Assembly: GCA_019752835.1 (NCBI GenBank)
Contig: JAIELR010000245.1
Span: forward strand, 1-6,204
Length of the DNA stretch: 6,204 nt
Direction: 5' to 3'
Origin: Gammaproteobacteria bacterium
GTDB lineage: Bacteria; Pseudomonadota; Gammaproteobacteria; UBA1113
The notes under the pieces were generated by a model. It was given only the letters and a program-made list of their open reading frames with translations, had not been told where the DNA came from and made no database searches. Each line of letters begins with the position of its first letter. The stretch's first letter is position 1. Positions 1,930-4,432 of this stretch are shown piece after piece. The translations under genes and the position numbers were made by a program.

Positions 1930-2784
1930 CTAGAACCTCAACTTCCGCAAACGCAATGCATTCGCGATCACTGATACAGAACTCAACGACATGGCAAGTG
2001 CAGCAATAATTGGGCTAAGAAGCAGACCGAAGGCAGGGTAAAGAACGCCTGCTGCAATCGGGATGCCGATCGCGTTATAGGCGAATGCAAATACCAGGTT
2101 TTGGCGAATATTACGCATTGTTGCGCGGCTCAACATTATGGCGCGTGCAATGCCCGCAAGATCACCCTTTACCAACGTAATCCCGGCGCTTTGGATCGCG
2201 ACTTCGGCCCCAGTACCCATAGCAATGCCAACAGCAGCTTCGGCCAACGCTGGGGCATCGTTCACGCCGTCACCTGCCATGGCGACAACACGCCCCTCCG
2301 CCGTGATTTTTTTTATGATGCGATTTTTGTCTTGCGGCAGAATGCCCGCATTGACTTCCTTGATACCAAGCTTACGAGCAACCGCCTCAGCTGTCGTCTT
2401 GTTGTCACCAGTTAGCATCACAATCTGTATGCCCTCTTTTCGTAGACTATCAAGAGCTGCTTGTGTTGTTGATTTAATCGGATCGGCAATAACAATGATG
2501 CCACCTGCTTTGCCATTTATTGCGAGAAAAAGAGCCGTTGCCCCATCAATGCGAAACTCCTCTGCCTTATGCTCGAGCTCACCAAGCAGGATGCCCATAT
2601 CAGCCATCAACGTCGTATTACCTGATAGTGTCGCGTTTTTTTGCAAAACCTTTTGGGACTCCGAGTCCACCAAAAGGAGCAAAAAACTCGCGACAAGTAT
2701 CGCCTTCAGCGGGAGTGCTCGTGAGTCCTGCGGTCTACTTATCTCTTCGCTGGCGCTCTGAACTAAGTGCCCACAATGACTCAA
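1930..2784 (-). pseudogene. copA: Copper-translocating P-type ATPase, C-terminal fragment (interrupted gene)
   Basis: Native ATPase sequence covers about 230 codons from 2622 (GGT, the Gly of GNTTLMADMG) to the TAG at 1930. It carries the rest of the nucleotide-binding domain (EFRIDGATALFLAINGK), the P-domain motifs MLTGDNKTTAEA and AMAGDGVNDAP with MGTGAEVA, and the last two membrane helices. Those contain the YN pair (AFAYNAIGIP) and MSLSS (the MxxSS pattern) that, with CPC in the other fragment, define Cu(I) exporters of subtype P1B-1. The open frame extends upstream to a TTG at 2784, so its first 54 residues are encoded almost wholly by the inserted element and include a hydrophobic LVASFLLLLV stretch. 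The TTG has only a distant AGGGA before it. The frame differs from that of the N-terminal fragment. Best read as the broken second half of one gene; production of a chimeric protein is possible but unsupported. Confidence 0.88.
2624..2701. repeat. Long imperfect palindrome at one end of the insertion
   Basis: Arms read on the plus strand: GATA (2624-2627) with TATC (2698-2701); TGTCGCG (2629-2635) with CGCGACA (2689-2695); TTTTTTGC (2637-2644) with GCAAAAAA (2679-2686); CCTTTTGG (2649-2656) with CCAAAAGG (2670-2677); GACTC (2657-2661) with GAGTC (2663-2667). Small bulges separate the blocks and the extreme tip must open to form a loop. About 30 base pairs match in total, far beyond chance, and the outer edge coincides with the copA junction. 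Confidence 0.85.
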
Positions 2785-2793
2785 CGCCGTGTC

Positions 2794-2832
2794 GGTTCCC
2801 TTGTGTTTCGCCTGCGGCTCAACACCCGGACC
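2794..2832. repeat. Symmetrical hairpin inside the insertion
   Basis: On the plus strand GGT-t-CC pairs with GGACC (2828-2832), GTGTT (2803-2807) with AACAC (2821-2825), and GCC (2810-2812) with GGC (2816-2818), around a TGC loop with matched 2-base internal loops. The inner part overlaps the first copy of the CCTGCGGCTC direct repeat (2811-2820); the second copy is at 2831-2840 and a shorter CCTGCGG is at 2727-2733. Confidence 0.6.
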
Positions 2833-4432
2833 TGCGGCTCCTCACGCTCGTCGCACGTCGTGTGCGACTTCGAAGGGCTATAAGCTTGTCATCGACTTTG
2901 CCAGCCACACCTTTACCGGTATAGGAGACAAAATCCGTCGGCTCTTGGATTGAGGTGCTGCTATCCTGTGCAGTTGCAACGATAGCCGCGGCAAGAGGGT
3001 GCTCACTGGACTGTTCAAGACTCGCTGCCCATGACAAAATATCGGACTCCGAAAGCCCCGCTGCCGGAACAATAGATATCACTTTAGGTTTACCTTCCGT
3101 AAGTGTGCCCGTCTTGTCCACGACCAATGTATCCACTTTTTCCATGCGTTCAAGAGCAGCTGCCGACTTGATTAAAATACCCACACCTGCACCTTTGCCG
3201 ATGCCCACACCGATCGACATCGGCGTAGCCAGGCCAAGTGCACATGGGCAAGCGATGATGAGAACAGAAACCGCCGCAATTAACGCATAAGAAAATGCAG
3301 GAGCAGGGCCCCAAATAGCCCATACAATAAACGTAATGACAGCGATACCTAATACTGCTGGGACGAAGTAACCCGACACGGTATCCGCTAGTCGTTGAAT
3401 GGGCGCTCGGCTCCGCTGCGCTTCAGCGACCATCGCAACGATCTGCGCGAGCATGGTATCGGCACCGACCTTGTCAGCACGCATGATCAAAGCGCCCGAG
3501 CCATTTACGGTTCCTCCAATAAGCTTATCAGCGGACTGTTTGATAACAGGCATTGACTCGCCAGTGACCATAGACTCATCCACAACACTCTTACCCTCAA
3601 GCACCTCGCCATCAACGGGTACGCCATCACCAGGGCGTACCCGCAAACGGTCGCCAACGTAAACGAGCTCAAGAACAACCTCTTCATCCACGCCATTAGT
3701 GTTTAAGCGACGTGCTGTTTTAGGTGCCAAATTAAGCAATGCACGAATCGCATCGCCAGTTTGTTCACGGGCACGCAACTCAAGCACTTGACCGAGCAAA
3801 ACGAGAACGGTAATCACCGCAGCGGCTTCGAAATAAACCGGAATCGTACTGTCCATCCCGCGAAACCCAGCAGGGAAGAGCCCCTGCAGAAATGTTGCAA
3901 AGAGGCTATAGAGATAAGCGGCGCCTGTGCCAAGAGCAATTAAACTAAACATATTCAGACTGCGATGTACGACCGATGCCCAAGCTCGTTTAAAGAATGG
4001 CCACCCCGCCCACAAGACGACTGGTGTCGATAAAACGAATTGTATCCATGTGGAGATCTGCGCAGAAATGGGATTATGAAGGCCAAAAACAGAGATGTGG
4101 CCCCCCATTTCTAGTATGAAAATCGGTAACGTTAAAACTAACCCAATCCAGAAACGTCGCGTCAAATCCACAAGCTCATGATTCGGCTCGGCATCGGTTG
4201 TTGCCATTACTGACTCCAGCGCCATCCCGCAAAGAGGACAATCGCCCGGACCCACTTGGCGGATCTGTGGATGCATTGGGCAGGTGTAGATGTTACTTGT
4301 GTTGAGCGATGCCGTGCGTATTGCTACATGTGTGTGGTGATGTTTACATGGCGACTCATTATTCACTATTGGTTCTGGTTTTGATCCAAGCTTCTCAGGC
4401 CCTGACTTACAGTGGTTATCCTGTGATGACAT
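2819..4432 (-). pseudogene. copA: Copper-translocating P-type ATPase, N-terminal fragment (interrupted gene)
   Basis: 537 codons, of which 1-520 (4432-2873) are genuine ATPase; the last 17, rich in Arg and Ser, and the TGA come from the insertion. A His-rich N-terminus (HHHTH, 31-35) is followed by a YHS-like heavy-metal-binding domain YTCPMHP...GDCPLCGM (49-70). Then come four membrane segments (about 94-110, 128-146, 161-183, 198-217), the actuator domain with TGES (290-293), two helices including the CPC metal site (395-397), the phosphorylation motif DKTGT (439-443) and the nucleotide-domain SEHP (476-479). CPC with the downstream YN and MxxSS indicates Cu(I) export across the inner membrane. 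AAGGA stands 10 bases before the ATG, and aroE ends only 36 bp upstream. Base composition is clearly GC-richer than the flanks. The product lacks the GDGVND hinge and the last two helices, so alone it should not transport. Confidence 0.9.
2850..2868. repeat. Perfect 7-bp-stem hairpin near the other end of the insertion
   Basis: GTCGCAC (2850-2856) and GTGCGAC (2862-2868) are exact inverted copies around the 5-base loop GTCGT. The hairpin ends 4 bases before the inferred junction at 2872/2873. Its GTCGC half-sites echo those in the large palindrome at the opposite end. Confidence 0.75.

What the first reader, a model, noticed from the sequence alone, without database searches (positions are those of the whole stretch)
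2623..2872. Undescribed-looking 250-bp palindromic insertion splitting a copper ATPase
The two copA fragments join perfectly when 2623-2872 is removed (VDDKLIAL then GNTTLMADMG), so the insert is precise and no ATPase codons appear lost. It encodes no recognisable protein, has a different composition from the AT-rich genome, and is packed with hairpins and a direct repeat. This is what a small non-autonomous mobile element or a mobile structured-RNA element would look like. The family is not one I recognise.
Basis: partly seen in the sequence, partly recalled or inferred. Interest (0 to 1): 0.7.

Follow-up and report, generated by a model that had tools for sequence, protein, structure and literature searches.

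The report
Widespread hairpin-ended mobile DNA element
A 250-letter stretch interrupting a copper-pump gene belongs to a widespread, apparently undescribed family of small structured jumping DNA elements in Gammaproteobacteria that insert cleanly, without duplicating their target, almost always next to one fixed base.

Summary
Window 2623-2872 is 250 nt of extra DNA in copA: of 25 listed plasmid orthologues 13 are shorter by exactly 250, the rest by 251, 253 or 256. It matches no Rfam family but has relatives. A covariance model of its left 83 nt hits 50 of 201 sampled genomes of one order and 12 of 369 of the class; one genome has 23 copies at 99-100% identity. The 86 copies measured are 279-320 nt, too short for a transposase, with sharp ends and no target duplication. 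In 84 of 86 the fourth base beyond the right end is G. The left hairpin covaries (29 of 32 pairs). So it is a small non-autonomous mobile element; not an intron (split genes lie on both strands), not a classic MITE or REP. How it moves is inferred: most likely as folded single-stranded DNA worked in trans by a Y1 (IS200/IS605 or RAYT-type) transposase. Y1 genes lie within 1 kb of copies more than chance predicts (4 of 68, 0.46 expected; IS110 control 0 of 69), but lagging-strand bias was not significant and no mobilising enzyme is proven.

The parts
2623..2872 (+). The whole element, 250 nt, drawn in family '+' orientation (antisense to copA)
   Evidence: copA orthologue spans lack exactly 250 nt in 13 of 25 listed rows; left end aligned with 51 other matches
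2623..2704 (+). Left-end hairpin domain; terminal four bases pair with bases beyond the hairpin foot
   Evidence: model R1 89.8 bits, E 1.6e-21 (the window is one of the five sequences R1 was built from); 29 of 32 pairs with both-sided changes on 51 distinct sequences
2774..2815 (+). Conserved central block and first arm of the central hairpin
   Evidence: 15-sequence alignment
2850..2868 (+). Right subterminal hairpin, two 7-bp arms 2850-2856 and 2862-2868, followed by 4 nt to the end
   Evidence: fold; other members show other hairpins here by reading
2873..2876 (+). Right flank, target motif NNNG (here AAGG)
   Evidence: G at the fourth flank base in 84 of 86 copies elsewhere and in 16 of 20 further sites
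2873..4432 (-). N-terminal part of the split copper ATPase gene copA
   Evidence: ORF 2819..4432; orthologues
1930..2622 (-). C-terminal part of the split copper ATPase gene copA
   Evidence: ORF 1930..2784 begins inside the element; orthologues

Best explanation
It is one copy of a family of small (mostly 280-320 nt, here 250) non-autonomous mobile DNA elements with a long covarying hairpin at one end and a short subterminal hairpin at the other. Shown: multicopy, sharp ends, precise insertion without target duplication, one fixed target base (in copA-strand orientation, C four bases upstream of the insertion point), genes split, spread over distant Gammaproteobacteria. Inferred: it moves as a folded single DNA strand cut and joined in trans by a Y1 (HUH) transposase of the IS200/IS605 or RAYT kind, with bases next to the hairpin feet choosing the cut sites as in IS608. 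In the window it has landed in copA and, by inference, broken the gene. I put mobility at about 0.95 and the Y1 mechanism at about 0.4; the number below is for the whole statement.
For: 23 copies of 99-100% identity at unrelated sites in G082 and 15 copies with an identical model score in G063. Natural empty site in L203. Flank ends show no duplication: none of 86 identical over 5 nt or more, 5 of 86 over 2 nt against 7.2 in shuffles. Same Pfam family on both sides of the insertion at 8 sites, with 2-8 profile positions missing at seven and 19 at L063. Target G 84 of 86. End helix: both-sided changes at 4 of 4 pairs, like the guide pairing described for IS200/IS605 ends in PMC8266576 (passages read). 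The element's own end reads NNNG in four subfamilies. Y1 genes near copies 4 of 68 against 0.46 expected, p 0.0013; IS110 control 0 of 69.
Against: No copy with a Y1 gene between matching ends was found among the loci read. Of the four near pairs, one (G043) looks like an IS200-type insertion that cut an element, and in L203 the element sits inside the transposase gene's own flanking repeat. Expected lagging-strand bias is not significant: 52 of 89, p 0.069. Y1 genes are nearly universal here, 175 of 201 genomes, yet G057 and G128, which have model matches, have none. Members starting YGAT, the window included, do not have NNNG at their own end. In the end helix three of the four pairs fail in 10 of 51 sequences each. 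A target of one fixed base is looser than any IS200/IS605 target I know (recalled).
Confidence: 0.45

Rival explanations
1. A mobile intron or other RNA-level element that is removed from the transcript, so that split genes still work.
For: Precise insertion without duplication; at 7 of the 8 sites where both sides hit the same Pfam family the gene runs in the same relative strand as in the window; strong structure.
Against: A fatty-acid isomerase gene is split in the opposite strand with Pfam hits on both sides (L090), and further one-sided cases on that strand (L026, L085, L146, L147); at 51 of 85 sites no spanning reading frame met my threshold; no group I or II match in the window; most lengths are not multiples of three.
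Confidence: 0.07
2. A shrunken group II intron moved by a group II reverse transcriptase.
For: Group IIC-like introns sit inside copies in G191 and G153.
Against: The intron has its own full-length D1-D4 and D5-D6 matches outside the element sequence and different entry points in the two genomes; G039 has four near-identical copies and no maturase-domain match.
Confidence: 0.03
3. A classic MITE moved by a DDE transposase.
For: Small, multicopy, no transposase.
Against: No target duplication at 86 sites nor at the natural empty site; ends are not matching terminal inverted repeats by reading.
Confidence: 0.04
4. Moved by another recombinase acting on folded single strands or circles (integron integrase, other tyrosine or serine recombinase, IS110-type), so the Y1 link is coincidental.
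For: Precise insertion fits; group IIC-like introns land in the element, as for attC sites (recalled; PMC7923331 seen as listing only); the Y1 evidence is only associative.
Against: No common attC-like core is seen at the printed ends, though no integron model was run; no IS110 gene lies within 3 kb of the copies counted in seven genomes, and G043 has none.
Confidence: 0.3
5. A stand-alone guide RNA of an IscB or TnpB system, with the right flank as its recognition motif.
For: Structured RNA-like body and a short one-sided motif.
Against: IscB N-terminal domain (PF14239) in 5 of 18 genomes, at full length only in G191; no element-like DNA in the ten loci fetched around these genes. TnpB was not searched.
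Confidence: 0.04
6. Assembly artefact or chance hairpin.
For: The window is a 6204-base contig without reads here.
Against: Same structure and sequence with sharp ends in many genomes; exact 250-nt difference from 13 of 25 listed orthologues.
Confidence: 0.02

Closest known systems
REP / BIME elements with RAYT (TnpA-REP) transposases
   Same: Hairpin repeats without genes, multicopy, hypothesised to be moved in trans by Y1 enzymes (PMC3733652 abstract and section 16 read; PMC8266576 passages read)
   Different: Seven to ten times longer, two unlike hairpin ends, no GTAG tag at the printed ends, found inside genes too, tens of copies at most in the genomes seen, not the flanking repeats of the RAYT genes looked at
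IS200/IS605 elements and their non-autonomous derivatives (PATEs; recalled, PMC7290912 seen as listing only)
   Same: No target duplication, hairpins near the ends, target on one side only, end-guide pairing
   Different: No transposase copy found with the same ends; target reduced to one fixed base
Bacterial MITEs such as QMITE1 and QMITE2 of Coxiella
   Same: Small, palindromic, multicopy; QMITE2 is a target of IS1111 (PMC5896051 passages read)
   Different: QMITEs have terminal inverted repeats and direct repeats; these do not
Integron attC sites
   Same: Folded site that attracts group IIC introns (PMC7923331, listing and start of abstract only)
   Different: Copies lie scattered in mixed orientations; no attC-like core seen; integron models not run

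Membership tests
MITE (DDE type) | terminal inverted repeats | tested here: not met
   ends of 15 aligned members, by reading
MITE (DDE type) | target site duplication | tested here: not met
   0 of 86 with identical flank ends of 5 nt or more; natural empty site
REP/BIME | 20-40 nt palindrome with unpaired GTAG or CGTC tag at one end | tested here: not met
   86 copies of 279-320 nt; no GTAG at the printed ends; CGTC occurs within the left stem of many members
REP/BIME | flanks a RAYT gene in the same genome | tested here: inconclusive
   3 Y1 genes with an intact element beside them, no matching pair of flanks
IS200/IS605 derivative | insertion without duplication or loss | tested here: met
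IS200/IS605 derivative | subterminal hairpins at both ends | tested here: inconclusive
   left hairpin covaries; right hairpin seen by reading in several subfamilies, unclear in the A-type
IS200/IS605 derivative | ends shared with an element encoding Y1 TnpA | tested here: inconclusive
   none among the Y1 loci fetched and compared; most Y1 genes were not fetched
IS200/IS605 derivative | active strand on the lagging-strand template | tested here: inconclusive
   52 of 89, p 0.069
Group II intron | domain V and D1-D4 in the element itself | tested here: not met
   no match in the window; matches in L164-L168 belong to a nested intron
Mobile intron of any kind | split genes always on the same strand | tested here: not met
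   L090 antisense with Pfam on both sides
IscB guide RNA | adjacent nuclease gene in some copies | tested here: not met
   18 genomes
TnpB guide RNA | adjacent nuclease gene in some copies | not tested
   no TnpB search was run
Integron attC | integrase-recognised core and cassette array | not tested
   no integron model run
ISfinder MITE or IS families | sequence match in ISfinder | not testable with these tools
   library not held

The most novel reading that the evidence does not exclude
A new mechanistic class of small mobile element: a large covarying fold works as single-stranded DNA (or RNA) substrate, inserted almost anywhere beside one fixed base, concentrated near the replication terminus, by an enzyme not yet linked to such elements.
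Probability: 0.25. Interest if true: 0.85.

Novelty: new variant of a known kind. Interest (0 to 1): 0.55.

Why it matters
By the identity of its copies it is a recently active family, in methanotrophs and scattered other Gammaproteobacteria, that splits real genes. The window copy matches nothing in Rfam 15, and the paper searches listed nothing describing it. With many identical copies per genome and a natural empty site, the open question of how hairpin repeats of bacteria spread becomes directly testable. Its near-total lack of target sequence makes the insertion enzyme worth finding.

Tried and rejected
Intron idea: the first five intragenic copies I read by eye (including the window) all lay on one strand, which looked intron-like; the wider count broke it.

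Nested reverse transcriptase: a 2.3-kb version in G191 and G153 looked like an autonomous copy, but the protein (group II RT/maturase, TIGR04416) and RNA models (RF02001, RF00029) show an ordinary group II intron inserted in the element.

IscB guide RNA: tested and not supported. TnpB not searched.

Replication strand: first tried with sampled GC skew, which was noisy in G082, then with dnaA and dif: 52 of 89, not significant. A better-looking fit with the terminus moved by hand was dropped.

A viral scan for the central block found nothing. Pattern hits L002, L006 and L008 are chance matches by reading and were dropped. Phage and E. coli collections gave no match. In the plasmid collection 3 of 72,556 records matched; two Streptomyces hits (E 0.07) were taken as chance. 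Five wrong-strand model matches were removed by a stricter E-value. In one search, 16 of 20 new sites had G at +4; 23 of the 43 loci given to that script were not counted (21 no recognised right end, 1 cut, 1 already counted), and L287 was probably mis-ended by one base. In one search I used 68 of the 73 Y1 matches for those seven genomes; the five left out are second pieces of genes already listed. In some searches L066 was left out, and 50 pieces from 56 frame candidates (34 of 85 sites) were scanned.

An IS110 gene beside truncated copies (L294, L302) was suggested by reading a few start codons; in L294 no frame of 60 aa or more starts there, so at best it is a remnant, and I do not rely on it.

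Full report
WHAT IS IN THE WINDOW. copA (minus strand) is split by 2623-2872. The upstream frame ends in the insert and the downstream frame starts in it. The twenty-five plasmid orthologues listed are shorter than the window by 250 (13), 253 (6), 256 (5) or 251 (1) nt. The insert is therefore 250 nt, shifts the frame and appears to cost no ATPase codon. The window's shikimate dehydrogenase is closest among named entries to a 'Legionellales bacterium' MAG (74%), so the host is probably an uncultured gammaproteobacterium. No genome of it is held.

RELATIVES. A distant blastn search gave one clear plasmid relative (Candidatus Methylocalor, 81.5% over 33%). A hairpin pattern then found copies in Methylocaldum sp. 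14B and a Methylococcaceae genome, and one IMG/VR contig (L003). Model R1 of the left 83 nt, built from five sequences including the window, matches 50 of 201 sampled genomes of the order at E up to 1e-3 (14 of them at 1e-10 or better) and 12 of 369 sampled genomes of the class at 1e-5 (two of these, G001 and G005, are also in the first set). The weakest matches were not all checked, but some weak-scoring genomes are among the richest: G082 has 23 copies of 99-100% identity.

ANATOMY. In '+' orientation (antisense to copA) the element has a left hairpin domain, a GCC-TTCG-GGC-like hairpin, a variable hairpin, a conserved block around CAATGACTNGACGCC, a central hairpin and, in several subfamilies, a short right hairpin 4-6 nt from the end. 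The 86 copies measured are 279-320 nt; the window copy is 250, some others are 214-271, and a 131-nt miniature lies in G039 (L088). The longest stop-free stretch inside any of the 86 is 106 codons. Fifty-one distinct left domains keep 91.3% of the cells of 32 pairs, with both-sided changes at 29 pairs (shuffle mean 17.9) and a covariation score of 0.437 (0.155 in shuffles; at most 0.084 when slid). That alignment was fitted to the model and leans towards it. Right ends come in types (..CAGCG..CTCCTTC and others) joined to similar left domains.

INSERTION. At 86 copies with sharp ends the right flank reads NNNG in 84, and in 16 of 20 further sites. The window reads AAGG. Milder preferences: the first flank base is a purine in 62 of 86, the second is G in 7, the fifth in 3. 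Flank ends show no duplication: identical over 2 nt in 5 of 86 (7.2 in shuffles), over 3 nt in 3 (1.4), over 4 nt in 1 (0.3), over 5 or more in none. In L203 (G082) a second, uninterrupted copy of the surrounding repeat shows the empty site directly: insertion between C and A with nothing gained or lost. Pieces scanned apart show the same Pfam family on both sides at 8 sites: Csy3, GGDEF, a DDE transposase (one side below Pfam's cut-off), ice-binding, TatC, TonB receptor and CobW in the sense orientation, fatty-acid isomerase in antisense (50 pieces, from 56 frame candidates at 34 of 85 sites). One-sided hits occur in both orientations. The element therefore splits genes and is not strand-bound to them.

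DISTRIBUTION. In six genomes with the chromosome in one contig 45 of 86 copies lie in the terminal quarter of the replichores and 4 of 86 in the origin quarter; IS110 genes show 17 and 19 of 69, Y1 genes 27 and 11 of 66. Selection against insertions near the origin could also give this. Strand relative to replication: 52 of 89 as expected for lagging-strand transposition, p 0.069.

WHO MOVES IT. No copy could encode a transposase of known size (inference from length). Y1 genes lie within 1 kb of a copy in 4 of 68 cases (0.46 expected, p 0.0013; 0.00125 with 200-kb jitter), IS110 in 0 of 69. One of the four looks like an IS200-type insertion that cut an element; the others sit beside intact copies. 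Y1 genes occur in 175 of 201 genomes, so presence alone says little. Group II RT is not needed: G039 has four near-identical copies and no maturase-domain match. The architecture (no duplication, hairpins, one-sided target, end bases pairing across the hairpin foot) is like that of IS200/IS605 and REP systems as described in PMC8266576 (passages read). I take a Y1 enzyme in trans as most likely, at about 0.4.

LANDING PAD. Group IIC-like introns (RT closest to GsI-IIC RT among solved structures; RF02001 plus RF00029 matches) sit in copies in G191 and G153 at different points.

NOVELTY. There is no Rfam match in the window; in the four loci only the nested intron is matched. Paper searches listed nothing describing it; I read the abstract and section 16 of PMC3733652, and passages of PMC8266576 and PMC5896051; the rest only as listings. 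ISfinder was not available.

Noticed in passing
L164, L165, L166 (G191) and L168 (G153): Group IIC-like introns (RT/maturase of 437 and 436 aa in L164 and L168) nested inside copies of the element, at different positions in the two genomes; the ORF in L166 is broken.
   Followed up: partly
L294 from 1765 (G270); L302, last 32 bases of its reverse strand (G369): After a truncated element the sequence reads like the start of an IS110-type transposase; in L294 no frame of 60 aa or more starts there, so at best a remnant.
   Followed up: partly
G082, G063, G191, G005, G023, G039: Copies crowd near the replication terminus: 45 of 86 in the terminal quarter, 4 of 86 in the origin quarter.
   Followed up: partly
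L203 1534-2061 and flanks (G082): A RAYT-like gene flanked by long repeats unrelated to the element, one of them holding an element copy.
   Followed up: partly
G153:C2:141899-184614 (288,757-base contig): Several element copies and pieces within about 43 kb of this contig, in both orientations.
   Followed up: no
L019, L020, L024 (G002): Relatives with an unlike left hairpin but a similar body and right end, as if the left hairpin can be exchanged.
   Followed up: no
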